From Rhizophagus irregularis (lineage: Eukaryota; Glomeromycota; Glomeromycetes; Glomerales; Glomeraceae): 64,000 nt of DNA. Below are positions 1-63,331 of this stretch, in pieces (the first letter of the stretch is position 1; the number at the start of each line of letters is the position of its first letter). The DNA is taken from contig NC_089429.1 in the NCBI RefSeq assembly GCF_026210795.1, forward strand, positions 7,287,001 to 7,351,000. Direction: 5' to 3'. Under the pieces are notes generated by a model that saw only the letters and a program-made list of their open reading frames with translations, was not told the DNA's origin and ran no database searches. Made by a program: the position numbers and the translations under genes.

Positions 1-2061
1 GCAGTTGAAGTTGCAGAAACTGCTAAATATTTTTGTGCAAGGTTACGTAAAATAGGAAATTTATCCTGTTTTCCATTCCACCATACAAGTGGATCTGACG
101 CAAAAGGAATTTCATTAAGTTGTAAATATTCCCCAACTTCATCAAGAGCTATTACATTATCTTTAATAAGTCGTTCCATTAGTGATTTTCTTTTGAATGT
201 GCTGGATGAGCCAGATGTACTGGATGCATCAGATGTACCAGATGCTTCAGGTGTATTTTTTTGATTATTTTTTTCTTGTTCAAATAGAGTTCGTAACTGC
301 TGCTCAGTATGAGATTTTTGAATTGATGAAGTAAAATCAAGACTTTTAAATCTAGGATCAAGTATTGAAGAAATTAAAGCATCAGTAGTAATTGTAGGAT
401 AATACTTAATTAAATTTGTATATAAAATTGATTTAATTTCATTAATTAAACCATAAGTATTAACTGATTTATTAATATCATCATTTGGTATTTCATCTTG
501 ATTCTCCTCATCAAATGCATCACCTGTTTCTTCTCTATTAATATTTTGTGAATCAGTTTCAAGTATTTTAATTATTTCTATTATTAATCGTGAATGTAAA
601 CTGCTTGTCACATATTTACTTCCTCCTAATTCCGTTGTTGCATCTGCAAATGTTGATAATACCTCTATTATATCAGCAAGAAAATCCCATTCCTCATCTG
701 TAATCATTATTTGCTTTAATCTTTTAGCTTCTTTTTTTGTATCTAAATCTGTACTAATTGAAAGAGTATTAGATAAAAGCTTAATCCATTCTTTCAAATA
801 TATTAAACGTGACCAGGCAAGATAACTTGAATTCCAACGAGTGGCCACGTCATTAACTAATCGAAGATATTTGGCTGTATCTTTGGCACTCTAAAAAAAT
901 TAAAATTTAATATTATAATTATATATAAGAATTTATAAATTATTATTAAAACTTACAATTTGTTCATTAGATTCTAAATTTTCATCTTTATTTGCATTTG
1001 GATATTTTTTTTGAATATCTTCTAGGCGTTCAGATTGTTTGGGACGCATAAAAAAATCAATTAATCTTTTCACTCGTAAAATTAATGGTTTTGCTGGGAT
1101 TAGCCCTTTTCCAATTATTAGTTGTAAAGTGTGTGCCCCACATGCTTGCCATTTAATTGAATTCATATCCGAAATGGCTTTTTTCATATTGGCAGCATTA
1201 TCAGTGGTGATTACAAAGACTTTTTCTCGTAATTTCCATTCCTCTAATGTTTCTTCTAAACTTTCTGCAATATGCTGTACAATGGAGATAACGAATACGA
1301 TTAACTGTTAAGGTAATTTCATTAAGTACAAAATTGGAATCAATATAGGTGCAAGTTACTCCAATATAACCTTGCCCATTTTTCACGATCCACATATCTG
1401 TGGTTAATGATACACTCTTTGCTTCCACCCTAATTTTTTCAATTAATATTGGCAATGTGGATTTATAGGATTTCGAAATAATTCTCTTAATTCCTTTTTC
1501 ATCTGGAATTATAAAAGCTGGATCTAATTCATTAATCAATTTACGAAATGAAAGACTTTGTACTACGTATAATGGTTGAAGATCTTCAGTTATCCAGTTG
1601 GTCAAAAATTGGCGAAGTTTACGTTGCCGACTTTCTTTATGCTTATAAGTATGAACAATAGATGTAATTGTTGACTGATTTTTCTATATTATAATAAGAT
1701 TATTAATTAGTTTTAACAGCACATAATCCACATATAATAAAAGATTAAGAAAAATACCAACATTCTTCATTCTATCATCATTTGTTATATCATGTTCCGA
1801 TGATAAATGATTAATCACGTTACCGGTTGAACCATCATTAACATGAATAGCTTCACATTTTTTTCCATCTGCACTTAAAACTTTACACCTCTTAAGTGGT
1901 TCTCCTTTATCACTTGTTTGTTCATTAATATCTACTTCTTCAAAATATTCCCACGTCCAACTTGATTTTTTTCGACTACTTTTTGCTTTCTTTGATTGCG
2001 GCACTTCTTCAGGATTTGAAGGACGAGAATGATCTTGCCTTATATCAGTGATATCACTCAT
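1..2061 (-). pseudogene. hAT transposase, BED-finger type, frameshifted and cut by window edge
   Basis: This is a cut-and-paste DNA transposase read on the minus strand from an ATG at 2059-2061. The first exon (to about 1762 or 1758) has a BED zinc finger: aromatic WTWEYF, then cysteines in RCKVL and KKCEA and the pair H-x4-H in NHLSSEH. An intron of about 75-80 bp follows (to 1684). The next exon holds the RNase H-like core with TTDMW and ITTDNAANM. An intron at 956-891 has a clean GTAAGT donor and TTTTTAG acceptor. The last visible exon runs to base 1 and contains the hAT dimerisation segment (PLVWWNG, then FPILRNLAQKYLAV). The frame breaks near 1281-1285, between NRIRYLHCT and HIAESLEE, so this copy looks inactive unless that is a sequencing error. 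The 3' end lies outside the window. Family assignment is firm; activity is unlikely. Confidence 0.9.
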
Positions 2062-4739: not shown

Positions 4740-6695
4740 ATGGCTGAAGAATAAGAACAAGAGGATAATTACAACTCTTTTCCATATGAATCCTTTATAG
4801 AGGATCAAATTTTTATTGATTATGAGGATGAGGAATATGAAGAAAGAGATAGTGAAATAACAACAGAAATGGCTGAAAGAGAAACTGAAATTACTGAAAC
4901 TGAAACTGAAACTTCTAGTATTAGATCTAAAGAATTAAGACAAGCTCGAGTTTAGAAACATTTTGAAAAAAAGACAATTGAAAAAGATGATGAACAAACT
5001 GAAACTTATATTTTATGTCATATTTGTGAAGGCCATTTTATTCTGCAAAGCAATTCTACTACAACTCTTGAACGTCATTTAAAAGCTAAACATTTTGATG
5101 TATATAAAGACTTAGGTCAAGTTGAATCTAATGCAAAACCCTGGACAGTTGATATACAACAAGAAAAGCATAATCTTTTTGTTAATTGGATTATCACAGA
5201 CCAGCAACCATTTACCATTGTTGAAAATCAAAGTTTTAAAAAATTTATAGCATCTATTCAACCAAAATACAAAATTCCATCTCAACACACAATAAAAGAT
5301 ATGATAATGAAAAAGTTTGAAAATGCACAAATTCAAATAAAAAACTACCTTCAACTTTCAACTTCCAAAATTTCGTTAACAATGGATATGTGGACAACAA
5401 TTAGTTCATTAGGTATTTTGGCAGTAACAATTCATTTTATAAAAGATGATTGGCAGTTTGATCACTTTGTATTAGATGTATTGTATATTCCTTCACCACA
5501 CACAGCTTTAGCAATTAAAGATTCTATTATTAAAATTGTTTCAGAATTAAATATTGCAGATCGATTAATTGGAATTACTAGTGACAATGAAGCAAAGATG
5601 TTAGCTGCGACTCGACTGATTAAAGAAGATCTTAATTTATCAGAATTTTGCCACTATCGCTGTGCAGCACATATTTTAAACCTTGCTGTTGAAGCAGCAC
5701 TTAATACAAGTATAGTTCCTAATTGTGTCAAAAAGTTGCGTATATTTATTAGTACAGTAAGAAATTCACCTAAACAAATGGATAAGTTAAAGGAGTTTTT
5801 TCAAGTTGAAAAAATTAAATTTAAAGTACCACTTCCAGATTGTACTACAAGATGGAACTATACATTCTACATGATAGATCGAGCATTAGAAATTAAACCT
5901 CTTTTGGCTCATTTAGTATCAAATCTTACATCATTATCAAATAATTGGCCAAATGAAGAAGAATGGAATATACTTACTATTTTAGCAGACTTATTAGCTC
6001 CTTTTGCATCAGTAACAAGAGTGATATCTGCTTCTAGTTATCCAACTATTGGTGAAGTTAAATTACTTTTTGAAGGTATTAGAATGCATTTAAATCAATC
6101 TCGAGGTGAAAATTTTATTTTACAAGACCAAGTAGATGAAATGAACCGTGTTTTTACAAATTATTTTGATGAAATAAGTGAGGCATTACATGTTCCAGCC
6201 TTTTTTGATTCCCGTTATAAAAAATTAGCATATGGTGATATGTCTCAAAATAATATTTTTGAACCAATTCGTAGAGCAATGGCCAATTATAGAGAATCTG
6301 ATGATACTCATATACCATCTCAACCCATTCAGGCTTCTCAGCGTCATTTAATGAATTTATCAGCAATTGAAACAAGAAATTTTTTTCGCAATTTAATAGC
6401 ACCAAATCAAACTCCGCAGCCTGTTTTAAATGAATTGGAACTTTATTTTACTTCTAACTCACCAGGTGATGAAATAGTACCTTTAGAATGGTGGAAAAAC
6501 CATTCTATGGAATACCCAACATTATCAAAAATGGCAAAGGACTACTTAGCCATAATGCCAATGTCTGTTCCTTGTGAACAGTTTTTTTCAATTGCAGGAA
6601 ACCAATTTAGTCAAACACGTAACAGAATTGATGCTAATACAGCACGAGCATGTTTATGCTTAAAATCTTGGTTAGAACAAGGAAAAATTGAATAA
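4740..6695 (+). pseudogene. hAT transposase with two in-frame nonsense codons
   Basis: One frame runs from ATG 4740 to the TAA at 6693-6695 (651 codons), broken only by TAA at 4752-4754 and TAG at 4953-4955. A 464-codon uninterrupted part begins at 5301. The N-terminal part is acidic, then a BED finger has CHIC and HLKAKH. The TAG sits where BED domains normally have an aromatic Trp before KHFE. The core carries TMDMWTT, ITSDNEAKM and the CAAHILNL stretch of hAT transposases. The C-terminal 90 residues form the dimerisation domain (PLEWWKNH, YPTLSKMAKDYLAIMPMSVP, CEQFFSIAGNQ). Both stops could arise by one C-to-T or G-to-A change. A product starting at an internal ATG would lack the finger. 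Nothing here suggests an intron. Confidence 0.9.
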
Positions 6696-11100: not shown

Positions 11101-11160
11101 CACACTTGAAATGCACCCTATAATTTTTAGCTGGCTCTTAAAGTTCGATAAAATTGTAAG

Positions 11161-14100
11161 ATGAATTGGTCAGGAACTAATTCTTTTTTATACTTTGTAG
11201 CAATTTTTATTTTATTTATAAATCCATTTGGTATACATTCTTATAAAATCTTATCTCATAACGAGAGCGAACCTGGATATCAAGTACATCAAATATTAAC
11301 CAATCACGATGGTACATCAGTCATCTATTTAACCAAACCTATAAACGAAACCTGCAACGAACCAAGTATCGATTTTCGCATTATAAGACCTGATGGCGCA
11401 GTTGATATTACTAAAGTTCACCATCCGATCCCAGATTTTAATTTTTGTCTTAAGCCAAATAATTTGTCTTTGCATATTAAACTTTTTGGTAATATGCAAG
11501 ATAATGTGATTATCCTTTATGAAAATTCTACCAATATAAATTCGGCAAGTTTTTATGCATTGCTTGTTAATGCTCGCACAGGAAACGTTATTAGGTTTTA
11601 TATATATTTTTTTCCCTTAATTGTTAATATTTTATTTGTACCATAATTAACACTACGTATAATCCATTAATTTAAAGCAATACTTTTCTCTCACTCGTTT
11701 CCACAATCAATGGGACTTTATCCTTCTCCGGAGACATTCTACCACACATTAACGAAGAGTATGGCTTTCTTTTCTGGAGTTTCATAACTGAAACTAAAAT
11801 ACGTTGGATTTACTTTAGTAAACCGTAAGTCCGTGCATTAAATTTTTTGTTTCTATAAATCAATTAATATTAATGATATTTTAATCGTCTTTAGTGATTC
11901 AGATGGTAATTTTAAGCCAATAAATAGTAATCAGTTTGAATTATTAAATCCGTTAGACAGATTTAATATATTTGCCGCCATTGATGGAACCTTTGGATTG
12001 GTTACTAGTAATTATAATACAAACGCTTCAATCCAACTTCAACCAAATGTTGATTTAATTAACCCAACCGAACCTATGTTTGGACTTTATATAACATTCA
12101 TTAAGCCGAGTGAAGATGCTGTTGATGGACCTTTCTTGCTTTATCAAACCGCAATTCCGACGTTACGGATAGTATTTCAATGTAATTCCATTTATACGAC
12201 TATGGGTTATTTTTGCATATTAAATATGAATGAAGTGCAACCTAAAGAAGAATCTAAAAATTATTTAATTAAAATAACATTTCAAAATACTGGGTTCGTA
12301 ATTTCTATATAAAATTATATAAAATTTAATAATTGTCATTATTGATTCGTATTTTTCCTTATTAATATAGCTCAGTTATTGATGTTGAAAAATTTTCGAA
12401 TCTCGAACTATATACTGAATTATATAACAATTTATCGGAAACTACGATATTTGAAAGTTTATATCATGGGGGCTTTTTAGTACTTTATTCCAAAAACTCA
12501 GAAAATAACCATAAAACGGTTCAAGCTATCATTCTTGATAATAATGGATTCTATAACAACACTTTGGACTTTCCAAAAAATTTGGAAGCCTCTAATTATC
12601 TCGCAATGCCGGGTTTTCGAGATAGCAATTTTATTATCGCTCAACAAGAAAACGAATATACTTGGAAGGTTTACTCGGAAGAATATCCAAAATTCGTTTA
12701 TTATGGTAATATTATGCCGAATAGTTTTTAAAATTATTTTTATTCGTTATATTTTAAACTTACTTACATTCTCTTTGTATCTTTAGATAATGATTATGAT
12801 AGTCCATATATTCAATCTACCTTTCCGTTAATTAATTCTATTATATCACTTTCAACAACTAATATTAATATCTCTTATAAATTACCAATTACGTTATCCA
12901 CAAATAATATTTCTATTTATCAACATAATAATGAAAATCCTATATTAAGACAATCAGTTCCAGGTAGTTCACTATCTCTTTCCCATAGTGCTGATAATCA
13001 AACTTTAATTTTAAATGTTTTGGAAAGTACATTTAATCAACCAAATGCAAAGTATTATATTGTTATTGATGATAATTTTGTTCAAGATTGGGAAACAAAT
13101 CAACCTTTATTAGGTTTAGAAAGTAATATTTGGACATTTAATACTAGTAAGTAAATAATATCTGTGGTAAATAAAAAAACTAAAATTTTTTTAACATTTT
13201 TACACAAACTTCTTTTCTTTATAGCTGATGACCGAGATATCTTCGCAGGTAATTAAATATTAATCGATTAATATTTTTTAAACAAATTATTAGTTGATAA
13301 TATAATATTGATAATTAATTTAAATATAGAGGATGCGATTGGTCGATTTTCTTTAACTACAGAAGGAACAGAATATTATGAAGGCCTTTCGACTTACGAT
13401 CAAAAAAGATTTTTATCACAATTAAGGGTTGATTTAGCAAAATCAATACCCATTGATATTAATAGATTGGACAATATTAAATTTTATAAGTTTGATCAAA
13501 GTCAACGACCTCCAAAAATTCTTTTATCATTACTTATTAAATCGACAAGAAATTCAAATGAACGGAACGTTGATCGAATCATAAAAGATTTGAATATCTT
13601 GATCAAGGAAAAAGACATTACTCCAATTTCATGGTTTAATACAACAATGTTTTTAGATGCCAATTTTGGATTCCAGAAAAATAGTAAGTTTTACCGCTAA
13701 TCCTCGTGCGTAGAAAAATATACATATGTATATATAATATTTACATATTTATTAATTGTATAGGGAATCTCTTTGATGAATATAAATTTTATTTAGTTGG
13801 TATTGCTATAGGAATAATAATATTAGGATTATCATATTTTTATGCTAAGAGAAGACATCCTAAAGTAAAGTATTCAAAGCTTATCTTATAACGTTTTCGA
13901 TGATTTGTGATTTCCATTCATTAATTTATTTGATTTGTAGGGTAAAAATATTATGGTTTTTAAAATTTCTTTAATTATTATGGATTTTATATTGGATATA
14001 TTGTTTGTTCTAAATAATGGGAGAAATGTACCACAGTTATTTATTCCCAGGTATAATCAATTAATCAATTATTATTAATTGTAACATATCTATTTATTAA

Positions 14101-14741
14101 GACTAAATTTTTTTTTTTGTATTTCAGTATTATTTTTTGTTCAATACCAATAGCGGCTAATTCCATAATGAGCATGATTATAATACTTAAAGAGATCACA
14201 CGAAATGAATCTTTCTACAATTGGTTTAAATTAAATACGAATATAGCAGCACTATTTACTATATTAGCGAGTGCTGATCTTGAAGTATTAGACACGCTTT
14301 CCTCACAAGTCGGTGGTATTAAGTTATTTAATGCTCCTATGTCAGAAAAGACTCAATTGTATATTTTTTGGGGGAGTCTTGTTGGGCTTTTTATAGAAGA
14401 TATTCCTCAATTTATTATTCAGGTATGTAATTAATATTTTTTTGCTTTAAAAGACTAATAAAAAGCTTTACTGACCTTTTTAACACTTTTAGATTTTCTA
14501 CGTGAAATTTACAGTTACATATGATTTCATCCCTTTTCTTACACTTCTAACAAGTTCAATTGTTTTGACAATTAATATAATATCTAGGTTATATCATATA
14601 ATAATAGTACATTTACATACAAAAAAAAGAATATCCGTTATGATATTGCCAATTGATCAAAAAATGACATTTGATTCAGATATTGAGAACGGTTTAACCG
14701 TTCCGCAAGCAGCCAAAGTGTATTATAGACATTCTATGTAA
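11161..14741 (+). CDS. Family gene 1: secreted-ectodomain multi-pass membrane protein, function unknown (935 aa, 11 exons)
   Basis: Exons: 11161-11594, 11678-11824, 11895-12293, 12371-12705, 12787-13146, 13225-13248, 13330-13683, 13764-13864, 13941-14050, 14128-14422, 14493-14741. The joined frame is open for 2808 bp, and every junction keeps the phase seen in the three paralogs. Residues 1 to about 28 form a signal peptide. About 30-440 is beta-rich and propeller-like (repeated G-G-[FY]-L and DG[PT]F strands). About 440-560 looks Ig-like (STFNQPNAKYYIVIDDNFVQ). Exon 7 (about 566-684) looks SEA-like (FLSQLRVDLAKSIPIDINRL, then PPKILLSLLIKS). Membrane segments follow in exons 8 (VGIAIGIIILGLSYFYA), 9, 10 and 11; exon 10 ends in IEDIPQFIIQ. 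This is the most diverged copy. Folds are inferred from pattern only and no function is claimed. Confidence 0.9.
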
Positions 14742-22494: not shown

Positions 22495-25400
22495 TTATTT
22501 AACAGTTTTTCTTATTTTTCGTGGAACTGTAATACTGGAATTTTCATTTGCTAGATTACATGATATTTTTTTATTTTGTAATATCATAATAGATTTCCTT
22601 TTTTTTGAATATAAATGTATTATTGCATGATATATTTTTGAAATTATATTATTTGCTAAAATAATTGAACTTGTTGAAAGAGTGAGAAAAGGAATTATAT
22701 CATAATTAACAACTAACTTTATGTAGAAAACCTAAATGTATTTAAAATTCAATGATATTTTAGTTTAATATAATAGTGTATAATAATGTTAAAATTTTAC
22801 ACAAACCTGAATAATAAATCGGGGGACATCATTAATAAAAAATCCAATAAAACTTCCCCAAAAAATATAAAATTGAATTACTTCTGATAGAGGAGCATTG
22901 AATAACATTATACCAGCAACTTGAGAAGAAAGTATATTTAACATTTCAAGGTTAGCACCAGATAATATAGTAAATAATGATGCTATATCAACATTGTTTT
23001 TAAACCATTCATAGAAATATCTGTTTTTTTTAATTTCTTGAAGCATTATAATTACACCCATAACAAAATTAATTATTGTTGGTATCACGCAAAAAATTAT
23101 GCTATAATAAAAATTTTTGCAAAAAATTAAAAAAAATCTAATTTTTAAAATATAAAAAAATTTTTGAAAATAAAGATGAAAAAGATGGATCATACCTTGG
23201 AATAAATAATTGTGGAACATTTTTTCCATTATTCAAAATAAACATAATACTCATGATAAAATTTAAAATAATTAAAGGAAATTTAAATATTACGATATTT
23301 TCACCCTATAAATAAGTAATATATTATTAGTTACGAATAATAATAATAAAAAGTATATGATGTACTTTACCAAAGGATATTTCTTCTTGGCATAAAAATA
23401 AAGGAATCCTAAAATTACTATTCCAATGACAATACCAATTAAATGGAATTTAAAATCATCCAATAAATTTTCTAAATAATAAAGAAAGAATTAAAATTTA
23501 AATAATAAAAAATTTTTTATAATAATAATTATATTTACTATATCTCCGAAATCCAAAGCTAGCTTCTAGATTATTTGTTGTACCAAACCATGAAATTGGA
23601 GTTACTTCTTTGTGTTTAATCAAAATATCTAAGTCTTTTATAATATGATCAACATTTCTTTCATGTGGACTTGTTGTCGATTTAATAGGTAATGATAAAA
23701 GAATTCTTGGAGGTTTTTGGCTATAATCATATTCACAACATTTTATATAATCTAATCTATTAATGTCGACAGGTATTGATTTTGCTAAATCAATTCTTAA
23801 TTGTGATAAAAATCCTCTCCGTCCATCCAATGAAAGTTTCTCAAAAGATTTTGTTCCTTCTTCCGTTAAAGAAAATCTTCCAATAGATTCCTCTAAATAA
23901 GATGAAACATTAAAATTGAATATTAATCAATTTGATTAATTATAATTTTTTTTTAAAAAAAATTTTTTTTACCTGCAAAATTATCTTGGATATTTACTAA
24001 AAGGAATTGTAATTGGTATTAATAAAGAACCAGTATAATTTAGGATATTAAAAATGCTTACTTGTATTAAATTTCCAACGATTTCTTACAACACCTAATA
24101 GTGGATTATTTGACTTCCAATCCCTGACCATATTACCATCAATAACAATATAATAATTTGAGTTTGGTTGATTAAATGTACTTTCCAAAACTTTCATATT
24201 TATTGTCTTTTTATCAGAACTATACGAGAAATATGGTGAATTTCCCGGAACAAATTGACGCAGTATAGGAATATCGTCATTATTAATATATTGATAAATT
24301 GAAACGTTGTTGGTTGATATCGTTACAGACAAATGATATGTAATATTTATGTTTGTGATTGATAAGGGTATACTTGAGTCAATTGATGGATAAGTTGATT
24401 TAATATGCGGATTCTCATATCCTTGATCTAAAGAAATAAAGAAAGATTAATTTTAACTAAAAAAAATAATTATTTGCATATAACAACTTATATTATGCTT
24501 ACCATTAGAGAAAAATTTAGGTAAAGTTGTAAAAGAAATTTTCAAAGTCATTTCATTCTCGAAAGTAACTAAGCGCAGTGACCCATTTAGGGAGGCTGTC
24601 ACTCCAAAAGAACCAGATGATTTCAAACCTGGTGGAAATCCCCAAGTGCCATTATATTTTCCATCATTATCAAGTATTATTCCTTCAATAGTCTTACGTT
24701 GATTATCACGTAAAGTTATTAAATATCCTCCTTGAAATAAACCATTAAAAGTTACTATTTCTGCATTAACAAATTTATCACCAAGTTTTCTCATATCAAA
24801 TACAGAACTAAGAATAAAAAAACCAATCATTAGATATATAATTAAGGTTATAAGAAATATTATAAACAATATAACGAACCCCGAAGTTTGAAATGACAAC
24901 TTTATAACTTCTGACGTATTTTTATCTTCTGCTCTGTTAAACATCAAAAGGCAAGTATTGCCGATCCCTGAAAAAGCAGTATCACAAAAGAAATCCAGTT
25001 CAAAATGAGGTATCGCTGATTGGTAAATTAAGAAAGGGCCATCCACACTCTCCATAACAGGTTTAATAAAACTGACATAAACCTTAAATGTAAATTTAGA
25101 CGGATTGATGAATTCATTAGATTTTATATTGATATCTGTTGAATTTGCATTTACAATACCAAAATTTCCATCAATTGAGGGAAATATGAAATAATAATTA
25201 GATGAACTTTGCAGATAATGTCTTCCTTCGTTTAATAGACTAAAATTTCCTTTATCGTCCCTAATAATCAAAAAGATTAATTAATTTTCATATTTACTTT
25301 ATTACAATTAAAATTATTAAAATAAACATAGTGCATACGGTCTACTGAAATACTTCCACATTACAATATTCTCAGTTTCATAATTAGCAAACATAAAACC

Positions 25401-25973
25401 GCACTCTTCGCTTGTGTGAGTTGTGAGATAGCCGTCGGCGTATATACTTCCATTTATTATAGAGATAGGTGCCACGTATGTATTGCTTGCCAATATAAAA
25501 ATTTTAATAAGCTAATATACATATATCAGTATATACTTAAAACATAATATACATGGATGCGTAACAAACCTAAGAACATATCCTGATCGAGTAATAGATA
25601 ATACATAATAACTTGCTGAAGCGATATCTAAATAAAGTATATTTATAGATCTTGGAAGGGAACGGTTAATGTCAAACCAATAATATCTATGGGGTCCAAG
25701 ACAAAAATTATATTCTGGGATCGGATAATCAACTTTAGCACTATCAATAGTACCATTTGGATGTAAAATGCGAAGATCAATTCGTGGTTCAATACAAGAT
25801 TCATTTATTGGTTTAACTAAATGGACAACCGTTATCCCATCTCTATAACTAAGTACTTTATAGATTTTGAATCCAGGTTCAGTTTCATTATGTAATATCA
25901 CATCATAAGAATATACAGTCAACGGATTTATGAATAATAAGATAAAGTAAAATAAATTTGTCAACAAATTCAT
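22495..25973 (-). CDS. Family gene 2: secreted-ectodomain multi-pass membrane protein, function unknown (907 aa, 11 exons)
   Basis: Exons on the minus strand: 25973-25570, 25485-25339, 25260-24880, 24807-24503, 24427-24062, 23996-23973, 23892-23539, 23471-23371, 23305-23196, 23101-22807, 22731-22495. Every exon length equals that of family gene 3, and the joined frame is open for 2724 bp. The signal peptide is LTNLFYFILLFINPLTVYSY; cleavage is probably near residue 22. Sequons HNET, INES and HPNGT suggest glycosylation. The ectodomain is beta-rich to about residue 535, a SEA-like segment lies in exon 7, and membrane helices lie in exons 8-11. Exon 10 ends NDVPRFIIQ, where gene 1 has EDIPQFIIQ. 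Intron 3 (24879-24808) is 72 bp, has no stop in frame, and would add a 24-residue hydrophobic stretch if retained. Function unknown. Confidence 0.92.
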
Positions 25974-26035
25974 TTTTTAGATTTTAAGAGTAAAAAGCTA
26001 AAATAATCAAATTTAAATATAATTTGTAGTAACAC
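25974..26035 (-). promoter_or_regulatory. Conserved block upstream of family gene 2
   Basis: ACAAATTATATTTAAATTTG followed by ATTATTTTAGCTTTT and ACTC is almost identical upstream of genes 2, 3 and 4, directly ahead of the start codon in each. Non-coding sequence in this window is otherwise poorly conserved, so the block may be core promoter or 5' leader. TTATTTTAG could also be the acceptor of a 5'-leader intron. Confidence 0.5.
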
Positions 26036-29466: not shown

Positions 29467-30144
29467 TTATTGACCGCCACCTCCACGGTATGCTTCAGCT
29501 TCACGTTTTTGGCCGCCACCTCCACGATACGGTTCAGCTTCACGTTTTTGACCGCCACCTCCACGGTATGGTTCAGCATCACGTTTGCCTGCTCCTCGGT
29601 GTGGTTCTGCTTCAGCATCACGTTTTTGGCCGCCACCTCCACGGTATGGTTCAGCTTCACGTTTTTGGCCGCCACCTCCACGGTATGCTTCAGCTTCACG
29701 TTTTTGGCCGCCTCCTCCACGGTATGCTTCAGCTTCACGTTTTTGACCGCCACCTCCACGGTATGCTTCAGCTTCACGTTTTTGGCCGCCTCCTCCACGG
29801 TATGCTTCAGCTTCACGTTTTTGGCCGCCTCCTCCACGGTATGCTTCAGCTTCACGTTTTTGGCCGCCTCCTCCACGGTATGGATCAGCTTCACGTTTTT
29901 GGCCGCCACCTCCACGGTATGCTTCAGCTTCACGTTTTTGGCCGCCACCTCCACGGTATGGGTCAGCTTCACGTTTTTGACCACCACCTCCACGGTATGG
30001 GTCAGCTTCACGTTTTTGACCGCCACCTCCACGGTATGGGTCAGCTTCTCGTTTCTGAAGGGCTACATTATCAAGTTGTAAGGGTGCGGATTGGACGGTG
30101 ATGATGATAGCGAGAAAAAGGAGAATTGCAAAAATGGGCTTCAT
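29467..30144 (-). CDS. Kex2-processed repeat secreted peptide precursor (alpha-factor-like organisation), 225 aa
   Basis: The precursor has a signal peptide (MKPIFAILLFLAIIITVQSA), a short pro-segment (PLQLDNVALQ) and then 15 tandem units of exactly 13 residues up to the stop at 29467-29469. Each unit opens with Lys-Arg (Kex2 site) followed by EADP (4 units), EAEA (7), EAEP (2), DAEP (1) or DAEAEP (1). The core is YRGGGGQ in 14 units and HRGAG in one. All spacer dipeptides are X-Ala or X-Pro, the substrates of Ste13/DPP-type aminopeptidases, so after Kex2, Kex1 and dipeptidase action nearly every unit gives the same heptapeptide. Family knowledge: this layout is that of yeast alpha-factor precursors and fungal Kex2-processed repeat proteins. 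I chose the ATG at 30144 because it opens the signal peptide; an in-frame ATG at 30195 would bury it. There is no intron. It is likely to be secreted. Whether it is a pheromone or a host-directed signal is not known. Confidence 0.93.
   Translation of the reverse strand: MKPIFAILLFLAIIITVQSAPLQLDNVALQKREADPYRGGGGQKREADPYRGGGGQKREADPYRGGGGQKREAEAYRGGGGQKREADPYRGGGGQKREAEAYRGGGGQKREAEAYRGGGGQKREAEAYRGGGGQKREAEAYRGGGGQKREAEAYRGGGGQKREAEPYRGGGGQKRDAEAEPHRGAGKRDAEPYRGGGGQKREAEPYRGGGGQKREAEAYRGGGGQ
29470..30054 (-). repeat. Tandem array of fifteen 39-bp coding units
   Basis: The units are in frame and unusually GC-rich (about 55-60%) for this locus. Silent variants cluster: neighbouring central units use GGAGGAGGCGGC for the four glycines and most others use GGAGGTGGCGGC. 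This suggests recent unit duplication or gene conversion. There are no spacers, so it is not a CRISPR array. Antisense frames of about 200 codons across it come from the repeat length being a multiple of three. Confidence 0.9.
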
Positions 30145-30345
30145 GGTTTTGTAATTATATGATGAGGGTAAATTAAAGAGTGTACAAGTGGACATACTTG
30201 GCTGATTAATATCGTTTAGTATAATATAAAGGTGAACTCTTCCGGAGAGTATGTCACACTATGAATTATTTGTTTGGTAGATTGGTGTCGAAAAATTAAA
30301 GGAATGAGTTGGAGAAAAAATTTTTTTTAGCGATTTTCAGAGAGT

Positions 30346-36706: not shown

Positions 36707-37313
36707 TACATGAAGTCAAAATTAGAGCCCAAAAGTAGAAATATTTTGACTTGGGAAGGTCAAAAGTCGAAATTAAAGTCGAAATGGTTGAAATTAAATC
36801 ATAGTCATGTGATTTTTATAATTATAATTTAATATAAAATTTTAAATGTGAATAACTCCGTCAATATTGATGCTACAGATATGAAATATATATCATTAGA
36901 ATCCTCTTGATGAGCTGAATCCAACCGCGTAAAGATCATAAAAATCGAATTACTGGATGCGGAGATCGTTAACTTTGAATTTTAAAATTATTGTTTACTA
37001 TAAAAATTATAAGACTATTTAATACCAAATTTTAAACATGAATAACTCCGTCAATATTGATGCTACAAATATGAAATACATATCATTGGAATCCTTTCGA
37101 TGAGCTGAATCCAACCGCGTAAAGATCATAAAAATCGAATTGCTGGATGCGGAGTTCGTTAACTTTGAATTTTAATATTATTGTTTACTATAAAATCATA
37201 TAATTATGACGTAATTTCGACTATTTTGACTTTTGAAGGGGCTCAAGTCAAAATCATTTTGACTATTTCAACCATTTCGGAGGTCAAAATTAACTAATTT
37301 CAGTTTCATGTAT
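36707..37313. mobile_element. Foldback element containing a tandemly duplicated core
   Basis: The outer arms are inverted: ATACATGAAGTCAAAATTAG on the left and TAATTTCAGTTTCATGTAT on the right, followed inward by matching GGTCAAAAGTCGAAAT-like words. Between them a unit of about 185 bp is repeated directly (36841-37020 and 37031-37198). Each copy holds AATAACTCCGTCAATATTGA, ATCCAACCGCGTAAAGATCA and the ACTGGATGCGGAG word of the hairpin module. Non-coding. Confidence 0.7.
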
Positions 37314-38439: not shown

Positions 38440-39670
38440 ACAATGAGTTCAAGCAATTCAATTATTAAAATTAGGTCTTAGTTTATTTAAAGGAAATGGC
38501 TGCAAGAATTGGTGAAAATATTTACTATTCAAGTATTTAATAATGTAAATGATAAGGAAAAAACTGAAAGATCACATAAGTTAACTGACTGTGATGAAAG
38601 AATTATGATTAAGCATATAATAATAACAAATAAGTATTTCACAGGAGTAAGTGTTTAAAAATCTCTAAAAATTAATGATAAAATTGAAGTAAGTAAAAGA
38701 ATAGTGCAGAGAGCATTAAATAAAAATGGGTTGTTTGCTAGTGCAAAATGTAAGAAACCTTTTTTATCAAAAACACATTGGAAAAAATGATTAAAATTTG
38801 CACAAAAATATCAGAAATGGATTGTAAGTAATTGGAGTAAAGTTGTATGATCAGAAAAGTCTAAATTCCAGATTTTTGAATCAGATAGCCATGCTTATTG
38901 TTAGAAAAAAAGAATGAGCTTCTTAATAATTAACATGTAAAGCCTACAGTTAAGTTTGGTGATGGAGTATTTTCGTATGAGAGTGTTTTACTTGTTTTAA
39001 AGTGGAATACTTATGCAAAATTGATGGAGCTTTGATACTGAATTGTATTGAAAGATCCTTAATAGGAATTTCTTAGATATGTTAAAATACTATAATTTAG
39101 ACTGTGAAAATATTATATTTTAACAGGACAATAATCCTAAGTATATGTTAGAAAAAAAGAACGAGCTTCTTAATAATTAACATGTAAAGCCTACAGTTAA
39201 GTTTAGTGATGGGAGTATTTTCGTATGAGAGTGTTTTACTTATTTTGAAGTGGAATACTTATGCAAAATCAATGGGACCTTGATACTGAATTGTATCGAA
39301 AAATCCTTAATAAGGATTTCTTAGATATGTTAGAATATTATAATTTAGACTGTGAAAATATTATATTTTAATAGGACAATGATCCTAAGTATACTGCAAA
39401 ACATACTTTAAAGTGGTTTGAGGATAATAATATTCAATTACTTAGCTGGCTACCTTAATCTCCAGATTTAAATCTAATTGAATACTTTTAGAATGATGTA
39501 GACTGCCATCTTAGACAATTAGATGTAGAAAATTAGAGGTAAAAATACGTTATAAAAATATGTTTCAAAGATATAGAATAAAACATTATTAGAAACATAT
39601 ACAAAGTTAATAAATACGATGCCAGAGAGAATTAATGATGTTTTAAAAGCTAAGAAAGGGTATACAAGAT
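38440..39670 (+). pseudogene. Tc1-family DDE transposase riddled with stops
   Basis: An HTH-like N-terminal part contains LTDCDERIMIKHI and KRIVQRALNKNGLFASAKCK. The catalytic part has WIVSNWSKVV-stop-SEK, where relatives read VVWSDE, and later F-stop-stop-DNDPKYTAKHTLKWFE, LP-stop-SPDLNLIEYF-stop-ND. In Tc1 relatives these stops stand at Trp or Gln codons. Each could be made by one C-to-T or G-to-A change. The frame is further broken by the internal duplication at 38900-39145/39147-39393. It is clearly dead. Family assignment rests on the DND and SPDLNLIE motifs. Confidence 0.85.
38900..39393 (+). repeat. Direct duplication, unit 247 bp, within the Tc1 pseudogene
   Basis: Both copies start GTTAGAAAAAAAGAAYGAGC and end in CCTAAGTATA. 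They differ at scattered positions, so the duplication is not very recent. It duplicates the middle of the transposase. Confidence 0.85.
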
Positions 39671-42799: not shown

Positions 42800-42854
42800 C
42801 CACAAATTATATTTAAATTTGATTATTTTAGCTTTACTCCTAAAAATCTAAAAA
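42800..42854 (+). promoter_or_regulatory. Conserved block upstream of family gene 3
   Basis: CACAAATTATATTTAAATTT then GATTATTTTAGCTTTACTCC precedes the ATG and matches the blocks ahead of genes 2 and 4. It is probably promoter or 5' leader. Confidence 0.5.
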
Positions 42855-45800
42855 ATGACTGTGTTGACAAATTTATTCTACTTTATCTTATTATTCATAA
42901 ATCCGTTGATTGTTTATTCTTATGATGTGATATTACATAATGAAACTGAACCTGGACTTAAAATCTATAAAGTACATACTTATAGAGATGGGATAGCGGT
43001 TGTCCATTTAGTTAAACCAATAAATGAATCTTGTATTGAACCACGAATTGATCTTCGCATTTTACATCCAAATGGTACTGTTGATAGTGCTAAAGTTGAT
43101 TATCCGATCCCGGAATATAATTTTTGTCGTGGTCCCAACGGATTTTATTGGTTCGACATGATCCGTTCCTTTCCAAGTTCTATAAATATACTTTATATAG
43201 ACATCGCTTCAGCAAGTTATTATGTATTATTTGCTACTCGAACGGGATATGTTATTAGGTTTGTTACACATCCATTATGTTTTAAGTATATACTACATAT
43301 GTATATTAACTTATTTATTGAAATTTTTATATTTGCAAGCAATACATACGTGGCACCTATCTCAATAATAAATGGAACTATATACGCCGACGGCTATCTC
43401 GTAACTCATACAAGCGAAGAGTGTGGTTTTATGTTTGTAAATTATGAAACTGAGACTATTGTAATGTGGAAGTATTTCAGTAAACCGTATGCACCATTAT
43501 TATTGATGTTTATTTTAATAGTATTAAAGTAAATATGAAAATTAATTCATTCTTTTTGATTTATTAGGGACGATAAAGGAAATTTTAGCCTAATAAATGA
43601 AGGAAAACATTATCTGCAAAATTCATTAGCTAATTATTTCGTATTTCCCTCAATTGATGGAAATTTTGGTATTGTAATTGTAAATTCAACAGATATCAAT
43701 ATAAACCCTAATGAATTCATCAATCCGTCTAAATTTACGTCTAAGGCTTATGTCACTTTTATTAAACCTGTTATGAAGAGTGTGGATGGCCCTTTCTTAA
43801 TTTACCAATCAGCGATACCTCATTTGGAAGTTCGAAGTTTTTGTGATACCGCTTTTGCGGGGATCGGTAATACTTGCCTTTTAATATTTAACAGAGTAGA
43901 AGATGAAAATACGTTAGAAGTTATAAAACTGTCATTTCAAGCTTCAGGGTTCGTTATATGTTATATGTTTATAATATTTCTTATAACTTTAATTACATGT
44001 CTAATGATTTGTTTTTTTTATTCTTAGTTCTGTATTTGATATGAGAAAACTTGGTGATAAATTTGTTGATGTAGATATAGTAACTTTTAATGGTTTATTT
44101 CACGGAGGATATTTAATAACTTTACGTGATAATCAACGTAAGACTATTGAAGGAATAATACTTGATAATGATGGAAAATATAATGGCACTTGGGGATTTC
44201 CACCAGGTTTGAAATCATCTGGTTCTTTTGGAGTGACAATCTTTCTAAATGGGACACTGCGTTTAGTTACTTTCGAGAATGAAATGACTTTGAAAATTTC
44301 TTTTACAACTTTACCTAAATTTTTCTCGGATGGTAAGCATAATATAAGTTGTTATATGCAAATAATATTTTTTAGTTAAATTAATTGTTTTTTATTTCCT
44401 TAGATTATGGATATGAGAATCCGCACATTAAATCAACTTATCCATCAATTAGCTCAAGTATACCCTTATCAATCACAAACATAAATATTACGTATCATTT
44501 GTCTGTAACGATATCAACCAACAACGTTTCAATTTATCAATATAATAATAATGACGGTCTTCCTATACTGCGTCAATCTGTCCCGGGAAATTCACCATAT
44601 TTTTCGTATAGTTCTGATAAAATGACAATAAGCATGAAAGTTTTGGGAAGCACATTTAATCAACCAAACTCAAATTATTATATTGTTGTTGATGGTAATG
44701 TGGTCAGGGATTGGACGTCAAATAATCCACTATTAGGTGTTGAAAGAAATCGTTGGAAATTTAATACAAGTAAGCATATTTTAATATCCGGATAAATTAT
44801 ACTAGTTCTTTAATAATATCAATTACAATTCCTTCAGTAAATATCCGAGATAATTTTGCAGGTAAAAAATGTTTTTTTAAAAAAAATTTATAATTAATTA
44901 AATTGATTTTATTCAATTTTAATAATTTTAATGTTTCATCATATTTAGAGGAATCAATTGGAAGATTTTCTTTAACGGAAGAAGGGACAAAATCTTTTGA
45001 GAAACTTTCATTGGATGGACAGAGAGAATTTTTATCACAATTAAGAATTGATTTATCAGAATCAATACCTGTCGACATTAATAGATTAGATTATGTAAAA
45101 TGTTGTGAATATGATAATAGCCAACAACCTCCAAGAATTCTTTTATCATTACCTATTAAATCGACAACAAATCCATATGAAAGAAATGTTGATCATATTA
45201 TAAAAGATTTAGATATTTTGATTAAACACAAAGAAGTAACTCCAATTTCATGGTTTGGTACAACAAATCATTTAGAAGCTAGCTTTGGATTTCAGAGATA
45301 TAGTAATTATAATTATTATTACAAGAATTTTCATTATTTAAATTTTAATTCTTTTTTTATTATTTAGAAAATTTATTGGATGATTTTAAGTTCCATTTAA
45401 TTGGTATTGTCCTTGGAATAGTAATTTTAGGATTCCTTTATATTTACGCCAAGAAGAAATATCCTATGGTAAAGTACTTCATATATCTTTTTATTATTAT
45501 TATCCGTAACTAATAATATATTACTTATATATAGGGTGAAAATATCGTAATATTTAAATTTCCCTTAATTATTTTGAATTTTATCATGGGTATTATGTTT
45601 ATTTTGAATAATGGAAAAAATGTTCCACAATTATTTATTCCAAGGTATGATCCATCTTCATTTTCAAAATTTTTTTTATATCAATTAAATTTTTAATTTT
45701 TGTAAAAAATTTTTAATTATAGCATAATTTTCTTCGTGATACCAATAATAATTAATTTTATTATGGCTGCAATTATAATGCTTCAAGAAATTAAAAAAAA

Positions 45801-46328
45801 CAGAGATTTCTATGGATGGTTTAAAAACAATGTTGATATGGCATCGTTATTTACCATATTATCTGGTACTAACCTTGAAATGTTAAATATACTTTCTTCT
45901 CAAGTTGCTGGTATAATGTTATTCAATGCTCCTATATCAGAAGAAACTCAATTTTATATTTTTTGGGGAAATTTTATTGGATTATTTATTGGTGATATCC
46001 CTCAATTTATTATTCAGGTTTGTAAAATTTTTAACATTATTATACATTATTATATTAAAACTAAATTCCATTGAATTTAAAATACATTTAGGTTTTCTAC
46101 ATAAAGTTGGTTGTTAATTATGATATAATTCCTTTTCTTACTCTATCAACAAGTTCGATTATTTTAGCGAATAATATAATTTCAAAAATATATCATGCTA
46201 TAGTACATTTATATTCAAAAAAAAGGAAATCTGTTATGATATTACAAACTGAAAAAATATTATGTAATGAAAATTCCAGTATTACAGTTCCACGAAAGAT
46301 AAGAAAAAATGTTAGATATTCAATGTAA
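42855..46328 (+). CDS. Family gene 3: secreted-ectodomain multi-pass membrane protein, function unknown (907 aa, 11 exons)
   Basis: Exons: 42855-43258, 43340-43486, 43568-43948, 44028-44332, 44404-44769, 44838-44861, 44949-45302, 45368-45468, 45535-45644, 45723-46017, 46092-46328. The joined frame is open for 2724 bp. The signal peptide is LTNLFYFILLFINPLIVYSY. Approximate residues: propeller-like beta region 25-410, Ig-like segment 413-534 (STFNQPNSNYYIVVDGNVVR), SEA-like segment 543-660 (FLSQLRIDLSESIPVDINRL), helix 669-688 (FHLIGIVLGIVILGFLYIYA), further helices at about 698-718, 732-755, 808-836 and 842-864. GDIPQFIIQ closes exon 10. The C-tail is basic (YSKKRKS). Frames that run on past exon ends are intron read-through, for example the hydrophobic stretch after FQASG. 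A pogo/Tigger relic begins 41 bp downstream. Function unknown. Confidence 0.92.
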
Positions 46329-59802: not shown

Positions 59803-59855
59803 GTTACCACAAATTATATTTAAATTTGATTATTTTAGCTTTACTTCCCTAAAAA
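59803..59855 (+). promoter_or_regulatory. Conserved block upstream of family gene 4
   Basis: TTACCACAAATTATATTTAA then ATTTGATTATTTTAGCTTTA abuts the start codon and matches genes 2 and 3. Further upstream (59650-59800) similarity to the gene 3 flank continues at a lower level. Confidence 0.5.
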
Positions 59856-62800
59856 ATGAATTTGTTGGGGATAAATTTATTCTACTCTATCCTTTTATTC
59901 ATAAGTCCGTTGACTGTTTATTCTTATAATGTGATACCATATAATGAAACTGAACCTGGACTTGAAGTCTATAAAGTATTTTCTTATAGAGATGAAACAG
60001 CGGTTATCCTTTTAATTAAACCAATAAATGAATCTTGTGTTGAACCACGAATTGATCTTCGCATTTTACATCCAAATGGTACTATTGATAGTGCTAAAGT
60101 TGATTATCCGATCCCAGAATATAATTTTTGTCTTGGACCCAATGGATTTTATTGGTTTGATATTACCCGTTCCCTTCCAAAATTTCTACTTGTGCTTTAT
60201 GCAGATATCGTTTCAGCAAGTTATTATGTATTAGTTATTACTCGGACAGGATATGTTATTAGGTTTGTTACGCTATGATGTTTTATACTGCATATGAATT
60301 TTAACTTATCAAAATTTTTTATATTGGCAAGCAATACACCCGTGGCACCTATCTCTATAATAAATGGAAGTATATATGCCGATGGCTATCTCATGTCGCA
60401 TACAAGCGAAGAATATGGTTTTATTTTTGCAAATTATGAAACTGAAACTGCTGTAATGTGGAAGTACTACAATAAACCGTATGTACCATCATTATTATTG
60501 TTTATTTCAATAATATTAAAGTAAATATGAAAATTAATTCATTCTTTTTGGTTTATTAGGGACGATAAAGGAAATATTAGTCTAATAAATGAAGGAAAAC
60601 ATTATCTGCAAAATCCATTTAATTATTATTTCATATTTCCCGCACTTGATGGAAATTTTGGTATTATAATTGCAAATTCAACAGATATTAATATAAAACC
60701 AGAACCTAATAAATTCATCAATCCATCTAAATTTACGTCTAAGGTTTATGTGTCTTTTATTAAACCTGTTATGAATAGTGTAGATGGCCCTTACTTAATT
60801 TACCAATCAACAATACCTCATTTTGAAGTGGATTTCTTTTGTGATACGGCTTTTACAGGGATTGGTAATATGTGTATTTTGACATTCAACAGAGCAGAAG
60901 ATAAAAATACGACCGAATATATGACTGTGTTATTTCAAACTTCGGGGTTCGTTATATGTTTATAATATTTCTTAAAACCTTAATTATATGTCTAATGATT
61001 GTTTTTTTTTATTCTTAGTTCTGTATTTGATATGAGAAAGCTTTTTGTTGATAAAGAAATAATAGGTGTTAATAGTTTATTTCAAGGAGGATATTTAATA
61101 ACTACACATGATGATCAAAATAAAACTATTGAAGGAATAATACTTGATGATAATGGAAAATATAATGGCACTTGGAGTTATCCACCAGATTTAAATGTAT
61201 CTAATTCTTTTGGAACGGCAGCCTTTCGAAACGGGACACTGTTCTTAGTTACTTTCGAAAATGAAATGACTTGGAAAGTTATATCTACACCTTTACCTAA
61301 ATTCTTCTCGGATGGTAAGCATAAATAAGTTGTTATATATTAATTATTTTTAGTCAAATTAATCTTACTTTATTTCTTTAGATTATGGATACGAAAATCC
61401 GAATATTAAATCGACTTATCCATTAATTAGCTCAAGTATACCCTTATCAATCACAAACATAAATATTACGTATCATTTGTCTGTAACGATATCAACCAAC
61501 AACGTTTCAATTTATCAATATAATAATAATGACGATCTTCCTATACTGCGTCAATCTGTTTCAGGAGATTCACTATATTTCTCGTATAGTAGTTCTGATA
61601 AAAAGACAATAAACATAAAAGTTTTGCAAAGTACATTTAATCAACCAAACTCAAATTATTATATTGTTGTTAATGATAACGTGGTCAGGGATTGGACGTC
61701 AAATAATCCACTAATAGGTGTTGAAAGAAATCGTTGGAAATTTAATACAAGTAAGTAAGCATATTTTAATATCCGGATAAATTATACTAGTTCTTTATTA
61801 ATATCAATTACAATTCCTTTTATTTAGTAAATATCCAAGATAATTTTGCAGGTAAAAAAATGTTTTTTTATAAAAAATATTATAATTAATTAAATTGATT
61901 TTATTCAATTTTAATAATTTTAATGTTTCATCATATTTAGAGGAATCAATTGGAAGATTTTCTTTAACGGATGAAGGAACAAAATCTTTTGAGAAACTTT
62001 CATTGGATAGTCAGAGAGGATTTTTATCACAATTAAGAATTGATTTAGCAAAATCAATACCTGTCGACATTAATAGATTAGATTATATAAAATGTTGTGA
62101 ATATGATAATAGCAAACAACCTCCAAGAATTCTTTTATCATTACCTATTAAATCGACGACAAATCCATATGAAAGAAATGTTGATCATATTATAAAAGAT
62201 TTAGATATTTTGATTAAAAACAAAGAAGTAACTCCAATTTCATGGTTTGGTACAACAAATCATTTAGAAGCTAGCTTTGGATTTCAGAGATATAGTAATT
62301 ATAATTATTATTATAAAGAATTTTCATTATTTGAATTTTAATTCTTTTTTTATTATTTAGAAAATTTATTGGATGATTTTAAGTTCCATTTAATTGGTAT
62401 TGTTATTGGAATAGTAATTTTAGGATTCCTTTATATTTACGCCAAGAAGAAATATCCCATGGTAAAGTACTTTATATATCTTTTTTTATTATTATTATCC
62501 GTAACTAATAATATATTACTTATTTATAGGGTAAAAATATCGTAATATTTAAATTTCCCTTAATTATTTTGAATTTTATCATGGGTATTATGTTTATTTT
62601 GAATAATGGAAAAAATGTTCCACAATTATTTATTCCAAGGTATGATCCATCTTCATTTTCAAAATTTTTTTTTATGCCAATTAAATTTTTAATTTTTTGT
62701 AAAAAATTTTAATTATAGCGTAATTTTCTGCGTGATACCAATAATAATTAATTTTATTATGGGTGCAATTATAATGCTTCAAGAAATTAAAAAAAACAGA

Positions 62801-63331
62801 GATTTCTATGGATGGTTTAAAAACAATGTTGATATGGCATCATTATTTACCATATTATCTGGTACTAATATTGAAATGTTAAATATACTTTCTTCTCAAG
62901 TTGCTGGTATAATTTTATTCAATGCTCCTATATCAGAAGAAACTCAATTTGATATTTTTTGGGGAAGTTTTATCGGATTATTTATTGGTGATATCCCTCG
63001 ATTTATTATTCAGGTTTGTAAAAATTTTAACATTATTATATTAAAACCATTATTAAATTAAAACTAAAATCCCATTGAATTTTAGGTTTTCTACATAAAG
63101 TTAGTTGTTAATTATGATATAATTCCTTTTCTTACTCTATCAACAAGTTCGATTATTTTAGCGAATAATATAATTACAAAAATATATCATGCAATAGTAC
63201 ATTTATATTCAAAAAAAAGGAAATTTGTTATGATATTACAAACTGAAAAGATATTATGTAATTCAGCAAATGAAAATTCCAGTATTACAGTTCCACAAAA
63301 GATAAGAAAAACTGTTAGGCATTCAATGTAA
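59856..63331 (+). CDS. Family gene 4: secreted-ectodomain multi-pass membrane protein, function unknown (911 aa, 11 exons)
   Basis: Exons: 59856-60262, 60332-60478, 60560-60946, 61019-61314, 61382-61750, 61828-61851, 61941-62294, 62361-62461, 62530-62639, 62719-63013, 63086-63331. The joined frame is open for 2736 bp. It is the closest relative of gene 3; exons 7-11 are nearly identical, while exon 4 is the most changed (296 versus 305 bp, with RKLFVDKEIIGVNSLFQGGY). The signal peptide is NLFYSILLFISPLTVYSYNV. Sequons YNET, INES and HPNGT are kept. The SEA-like exon 7 (FLSQLRIDLAKSIPVDINRL) and the membrane part in exons 8-11 match the paralogs. Exon 10 ends GDIPRFIIQ, with Arg for Gln as in gene 2. 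Short frames that stop soon after exon ends are intron read-through. Function unknown. Confidence 0.92.

What the first reader, a model, noticed from the sequence alone, without database searches (positions are those of the whole stretch)
29467..30144. Alpha-factor-style precursor with 15 Kex2/dipeptidase-processed units
Seen: signal peptide, then 15 in-frame 13-residue units, each starting KR and carrying an X-Ala/X-Pro spacer before YRGGGGQ. Established: Kex2 cuts after KR, Kex1 trims C-terminal KR, and Ste13-type enzymes remove X-Ala and X-Pro dipeptides; yeast alpha-factor uses this layout. Inference: the gene secretes many copies of one glycine-rich heptapeptide, a candidate pheromone, self-signal or host-directed signal in a fungus group long regarded as asexual.
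Basis: partly seen in the sequence, partly recalled or inferred. Interest (0 to 1): 0.88.

Follow-up and report, generated by a model that had tools for sequence, protein, structure and literature searches.

The report
Fungal precursor of repeated secreted peptides
This fungal gene appears to encode a secreted protein that is cut into about fourteen copies of one seven-residue peptide, laid out like the yeast alpha-factor precursor; its class is already published, its receptor and role are unknown, and the same genome holds other precursors of similar layout.

Summary
Observation confirmed. On the minus strand at 29467-30144 a 225-aa ORF has a signal-like start and 15 tandem 39-bp units: 14 with YRGGGGQ, one variant (HRGAG). 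All 15 spacers tile into X-Ala/X-Pro dipeptides. Among the 14 standard units KR and YRGGGGQ vary only silently, while the spacer changes only between E/D and A/P. Two decayed relatives exist (C5, C29); three of eight C5 units keep YRGGGGQ through silent changes. The genome holds Kex2-like, DPP-IV-type and S10 carboxypeptidase genes by domain, and one STE3-type receptor; no STE2 match, but that search had no positive control. It very probably is processed like alpha-factor; a mating role is not shown. The class is published: Kex2-processed repeat proteins (KEPs) with Ste13 signatures are reported as numerous in Rhizophagus irregularis (PMC6339444), so this is a new member of a known kind at most. 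Following the motif outwards showed a large two-exon family: 45 copies of a signal-exon stretch (control 0), many followed by KR[DE]A and short variable peptides. My paper searches found no description of it.

The parts
29467..30144 (-). Precursor ORF, 225 aa plus stop, single open frame
   Evidence: genome match C1:7316470-7317144 with no stop inside
30085..30144 (-). Signal-peptide-like N terminus MKPIFAILLFLAIIITVQSA; cleavage site not determined
   Evidence: read from the sequence; no signal-peptide predictor was available
30055..30084 (-). Short pro-segment PLQLDNVALQ before the first KR
29470..30054 (-). Array of 15 x 39 bp units; 14 are KR-[ED]A-[ED][AP]-YRGGGGQ
29587..29625 (-). Variant unit 12, KRDAEAEPHRGAG: three spacer dipeptides and a different core
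30193..30195 (-). Alternative in-frame upstream ATG (adds 17 residues, 242 aa in all)

Best explanation
A Kex2-processed repeat protein (KEP) with Ste13-type spacers. The precursor enters the secretory pathway; a Kex2-like convertase cuts after each KR; a carboxypeptidase removes the C-terminal KR; a DPP-IV/Ste13-type dipeptidase removes X-Ala and X-Pro dipeptides one by one and stops at Tyr-Arg. This would yield about 14 YRGGGGQ and one HRGAG per precursor, secreted as a linear signal peptide that probably acts on the fungus itself or on the host root. Shown here: the ORF, the units, the constraint pattern, the enzyme families by domain, and the relatives. Inferred: secretion, cleavage, linear product, signalling role.
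For: 15 of 15 spacers tile in X-[AP] dipeptides, and the variant unit's spacer is longer by exactly one dipeptide. In the 14 standard units the core has 0 nonsynonymous against 111 synonymous pairwise differences, KR 0 against 13, and the spacer 102 against 16, its amino-acid changes being E/D and A/P exchanges only. 5 of 5 variable codon columns in KR plus core are silent, about 0.002 under a simple expectation with transitions weighted 2:1. In the C5 relative 3 of the 8 units compared keep YRGGGGQ with only silent core changes, while their spacers differ (EAAA, EALP, KTLP). Candidate enzymes: S8 and P-domain exons on C32; DPPIV_N exons on C5 and C12, with an S9 domain at the C5 locus; 23 S10 carboxypeptidase matches. 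Published precedent for the class in this species.
Against: No transcript or peptide data. The units are closely related copies, so pairwise counts are not independent events, and unit 12, left out of the codon counts, breaks the core. In the C5 relative 5 of the 8 units compared have altered cores and one lost its Kex2 site (KC), and the C29 relative is a remnant, so the peptide was not kept in those copies. The enzymes are assigned by domain, not shown to be orthologues of Kex2, Ste13 or Kex1. No orthologue from another isolate or species could be examined.
Confidence: 0.82

Rival explanations
1. Mating pheromone proper: YRGGGGQ is sensed by a pheromone GPCR and drives mating in a fungus with cryptic sex.
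For: Alpha-factor-like layout; one STE3-type receptor gene; a pheromone-sensing pathway without a known peptide pheromone gene was described in AMF (PMC3834313, passages).
Against: Recalled: alpha-factor-type peptides act through Ste2 in ascomycetes. No STE2 match (no positive control); STE3 is called the a-factor receptor in PMC3834313. The genome has many other precursors of this layout, more than a mating pair needs. The co-inoculation study says that upregulation of mating-pheromone genes was not found (PMC7490403, passages).
Confidence: 0.13
2. Host-directed peptide: secreted YRGGGGQ acts on root cells during symbiosis.
For: Kamel 2017 describes a group of putatively cleaved repeat proteins of R. 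irregularis mostly expressed in planta (PMC5293756, passages); the twelve KEP-rich species singled out in PMC6339444 all interact with plants (section 7).
Against: No expression data for this gene; resemblance to plant peptides was not tested.
Confidence: 0.28
3. Surface peptide like Ustilago Rep1: the cleaved peptides coat hyphae instead of signalling.
For: Glycine-rich core, many copies per precursor.
Against: Very short polar core; PMC6339444 states that Rep1 lacks the Ste13 signature.
Confidence: 0.12
4. Cyclic RiPP of the ustiloxin (dikaritin) type made by UstYa enzymes.
For: Tyr-containing short core between Kex2 sites; PMC6339444 raises cyclisation for the Tyr-rich R. irregularis KEPs.
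Against: No UstYa (PF11807) match in the genome (no positive control). PMC6339444 states that the Ste13 signature is absent from such precursors. Of 39 window ORF pieces of 110 aa or more listed, I scanned 10 in Pfam besides the precursor; 2 matched, both hAT transposases; the others were not scanned.
Confidence: 0.05
5. Uncleaved glycine-rich repeat protein or unexpressed array; the Kex2 layout is incidental.
For: No product data; the relatives on C5 and C29 are decayed.
Against: Dipeptide tiling in 15 of 15 spacers and the silent-only core of 14 units are hard to explain without processing.
Confidence: 0.1

Closest known systems
Kex2-processed repeat proteins (KEPs) of Rhizophagus irregularis (Le Marquer 2019, PMC6339444)
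   Same: Signal stretch, at least three near-identical motifs split by KR, Ste13 signatures described as nearly identical to yeast's, peptides rich in tyrosine
   Different: The supplementary list could not be read, so I cannot say whether this gene is in it; the core/spacer constraint and the decayed relatives are described here
Saccharomyces cerevisiae MF(alpha)1 precursor
   Same: KR followed by EA/DA dipeptides before each core copy
   Different: 15 units instead of four, a 7-residue core (similarity to alpha-factor not tested), pro-segment of about 10 residues, no STE2 match in the genome
Ustilago maydis Rep1
   Same: Repeat precursor cut by Kex2
   Different: Rep1 lacks the Ste13 signature (as stated in PMC6339444)
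Ustiloxin-type (dikaritin) precursors
   Same: Short repeated core between Kex2 sites; Tyr in the core (recalled for ustiloxin)
   Different: Ste13 spacers here; no UstYa match in the genome (no positive control)

Membership tests
KEP (Kex2-processed repeat protein) | Secretion signal | tested here: inconclusive
   Hydrophobic N terminus read by eye; no predictor available
KEP (Kex2-processed repeat protein) | At least three near-identical motifs separated by KR/RR/KK | tested here: met
   15 units, 14 with the same core
KEP (Kex2-processed repeat protein) | Repeats make up at least 15% of the protein (criterion of PMC6339444) | tested here: met
   15 x 13 = 195 of 225 residues
KEP (Kex2-processed repeat protein) | Actual Kex2 cleavage | not testable with these tools
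   A Kex2-like gene is present on C32
Alpha-factor-type mating pheromone | KR followed by X-Ala/X-Pro spacers | tested here: met
   15 of 15 units
Alpha-factor-type mating pheromone | STE2-type receptor in the genome | tested here: inconclusive
   0 matches, but none of the 14 control genomes rang either; one STE3 gene found
Alpha-factor-type mating pheromone | Role in mating | not testable with these tools
   no functional data
Dikaritin RiPP | UstYa (DUF3328) enzyme | tested here: inconclusive
   0 matches in the genome, no positive control
Dikaritin RiPP | Cyclised Tyr-containing core | not testable with these tools
   needs mass spectrometry

The most novel reading that the evidence does not exclude
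The fungus runs a large, diversified peptide-signalling repertoire built on one processing code (KR plus Ala/Pro dipeptides): the window gene supplies one peptide in many identical copies, and dozens of small two-exon genes with a shared signal exon supply many different short peptides, possibly for recognition of self, partner or host.
Probability: 0.3. Interest if true: 0.82.

Novelty: new member of a known kind. Interest (0 to 1): 0.55.

Why it matters
A 2013 survey found no peptide pheromone gene in arbuscular mycorrhizal fungi (PMC3834313, passages), which were long taken to be asexual. A defined, short, easily synthesised candidate peptide makes self-signalling, mating and host signalling directly testable, and the processing code gives a way to find the rest of the repertoire.

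Tried and rejected
Relatives outside the genome: a viral-contig scan (3 pattern stretches) and a genome-contig scan (31 pattern stretches) gave none confirmed by tblastn. Pfam had no family for the window protein. Weak genome matches on C6, C3 and C12 (E 0.008, 0.047, 0.99) were not taken as relatives: L005 and L006 hold no ORF with two [KR]R[DE]A sites, and L007 is an Arg/Ser-rich ORF. The matches on C3:2056204 and C21:2479878 lie in short ORFs with one site and no array. A bacterial-type promoter scan upstream gave 5 sites against a shuffled mean of 3.1 and says nothing for a fungus. Paper searches for YRGGGGQ and for six processing-motif strings found 0 papers; figures and supplements are not covered. 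Two searches meant to support the species by chromosome number or assembly size found no paper, so the species name is inferred.

Rows dropped before counts; four listed matches whose second codon is Ser and not Arg (C3:4117642, C6:1038305, C9:2482451, C21:2065209) were not fetched; three such matches (C9:2482455, C12:1555440, C21:1009922) were not fetched; about 100 of 146 places were listed and the rest were not seen; 15 of the 146 are the window array itself; of 45 signal-exon places, 43 lie in loci that I held (22 from earlier fetches, 21) and 2 were not fetched; unit 12 was left out of the codon counts; 9 of 51 sites without an in-frame ATG were left out of the splice models, and for each site the model with most KR[DE]A was picked, which flatters the result; eight C5 units fitting a search form were compared; a partial unit at the start of the second piece and a last one (KREALVNH) were not.

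Full report
Observation. The array is real. The minus-strand ORF 29467-30144 encodes 225 residues: a hydrophobic signal-like start, a short pro-segment and 15 units of 13 residues. The units are 39 bp long and give the top tandem-repeat score of 53 rows in the window. Fourteen of 15 have the core YRGGGGQ; unit 12 is KRDAEAEPHRGAG. The window lies at C1:7287001-7351000 of a 146.7 Mb genome in 32 contigs.

Constraint. Codon by codon over the 14 standard units, KR and YRGGGGQ vary only silently (pairwise sums: core 0 nonsynonymous against 111 synonymous; KR 0 against 13), whereas the four spacer residues vary mostly by amino acid (102 nonsynonymous against 16 synonymous) and only between E and D or A and P. 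All 15 spacers, including the longer one of unit 12, are whole numbers of X-Ala/X-Pro dipeptides. This is what stepwise removal by a Ste13-type dipeptidase would ask for. Since the copies are related, pairwise counts are not independent; counted as codon columns, 5 of 5 variable columns in KR plus core are silent, about 0.002 by a simple expectation. Unit 12 is outside these counts and does change the core.

Relatives in the genome. A protein search found a match on C5 in two pieces and a weak one on C29 (E 0.0016); with the first C5 piece as query the C29 match is stronger (E 7e-9). The C5 copy begins with a similar signal stretch (MKLIFVTFFLIIITIVQSA). Of the eight C5 units compared, three keep YRGGGGQ with only silent core changes against the window unit (KREAAA, KREALP, KRKTLP); two of these, both in the second piece, also keep KR-EA and an Ala/Pro-ending spacer. 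The other five have changed cores, and one of them has KC for KR. The last 22 or so residues of the first piece match many other genome places: 57 of the 64 matches listed lie in that tail, 12 of them at E below 0.001. The C29 copy is a remnant with one stop inside the match. So the window holds the only intact copy that I found in this genome.

Machinery. A Kex2-like gene with S8 and P-domain exons is on C32 (the whole-genome match spans one stop, as expected where it runs across an exon boundary). DPPIV_N exons are on C5 and C12, and the C5 locus also has an S9 domain. S10 carboxypeptidases gave 23 exon matches. One STE3-type receptor is on C13. STE2 and UstYa gave no match, but none of the 14 control genomes rang either, so absence is not shown. 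Assignment is by domain; orthology was not tested.

Literature. Le Marquer 2019 (PMC6339444; abstract, passages, sections 6, 7, 11 and 24) defines KEPs and says that R. irregularis has a high number of them, that most of these have Ste13 signatures nearly identical to yeast's, and that their peptides are rich in tyrosine. Kamel 2017 (PMC5293756, passages) reports putatively cleaved repeat proteins with stage-dependent expression. Umemura 2020 (PMC7329392, passages) surveys KEPs in 1461 strains. Halary 2013 (PMC3834313, passages) found one STE3 gene and no peptide pheromone gene in AMF. A co-inoculation study (PMC7490403, passages) saw mating-related genes but no upregulated pheromone genes. 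PMC8786786 and PMC6960344 were seen in passages; the first describes glycine/proline-rich AMF surface proteins whose genes also have one intron just after the signal sequence. No paper with YRGGGGQ was found, which does not cover figures or supplements.

The wider set. A pattern for KR-[DE]A-[DE]-[AP] gave 146 genome matches, 15 of them in the window array, against 4 for the reversed pattern. Some are long YGY arrays (C24:1408k with 25 and C20:2223k with 19 KR[DE]A sites). Many belong to small genes with a near-identical signal exon: a 32-base stretch of it has 45 genome copies at up to 3 mismatches against 0 for the control. Of 36 loci fetched for the KR motif, 26 carry that stretch within 350 nt upstream at up to 5 mismatches, against 0 of 36 within 350 nt downstream; the stretch was itself drawn from some of these loci. 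Conversely, of 21 sites fetched by the stretch alone, 7 have KR[DE]A in some frame within 450 nt downstream, against 0 on the reverse strand and 0.05 expected in shuffles; 14 of 21 do not, so many copies lack the motif or are decayed. Splice models give 25 of 42 sites with an ATG a product with at least one KR[DE]A, and 11 of 42 no product with KR at all (best model chosen, and most sites came from loci selected for the motif, so an upper figure). Of the 31 models, 26 have a first exon of 52 nt and 18 an intron of 83-105 nt. Many products have a leader, DAAP or similar, then KRDADAEA or similar and short differing peptides. The window gene has no such intron and a different signal stretch, so I treat it as a separate lineage using the same processing code. 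The KEP pipeline of PMC6339444 needs three repeats, so one- and two-unit members would have been missed there; my searches showed no description of the family, within the held library and without supplements.

Verdict. Processing like alpha-factor: very probable. Membership in the KEP class: the repeat criteria are met; the signal and the cleavage remain to be shown. Mating pheromone: possible, supported by analogy only. The gene is a well-preserved member of a known kind, and its most interesting context is the larger repertoire.

Noticed in passing
G000, e.g. L025, L031, L036, L040, L042, L052, L054, L058, L068: Large two-exon family: near-identical signal exon (52 nt in 26 of 31 models), intron of 83-105 nt in 18 of 31 models, exon 2 with KRDADAEA or similar and short variable peptides; 45 copies of a signal-exon stretch, control 0.
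   Followed up: partly
L016 (C24:1408k), L049 (C20:2223k), L045 (C20:1900k), L021 (C2:1755k): Tyr-rich KEP arrays with YGY-type peptides; L016, L049 and L021 share the signal exon of the two-exon family. L045 also carries a long KRQEE repeat.
   Followed up: partly
L024 (C3:3197k): Long-unit KR repeat protein (KRDASAVADASGYNKYDDY...) with 11 [KR]R[DE]A sites; no Pfam match in the 240-aa piece scanned.
   Followed up: no
C5:5711.2-5713.1k (L002, L003): Relative of the window gene in two pieces; the tail of the first piece matches many genome places, as an inserted repeat element would.
   Followed up: partly
window 3-890 (-) and 4956-6692 (+): hAT-type transposase ORFs (Dimer_Tnp_hAT).
   Followed up: no
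window 11152-14431 (+), 22792-25976 (-), 42852-46071 (+), 59853-63058 (+): Four sets of ORF pieces that look alike by eye, with a signal-like start (YSYDVILHNETEPG type), probably four multi-exon relatives; three pieces scanned (11152, 24456, 42852) had no Pfam match. Not aligned.
   Followed up: no
window 36827-37195 and 38899-39393: Two long tandem duplications (periods 190 and 248 bp, 93% and 92% matches).
   Followed up: no
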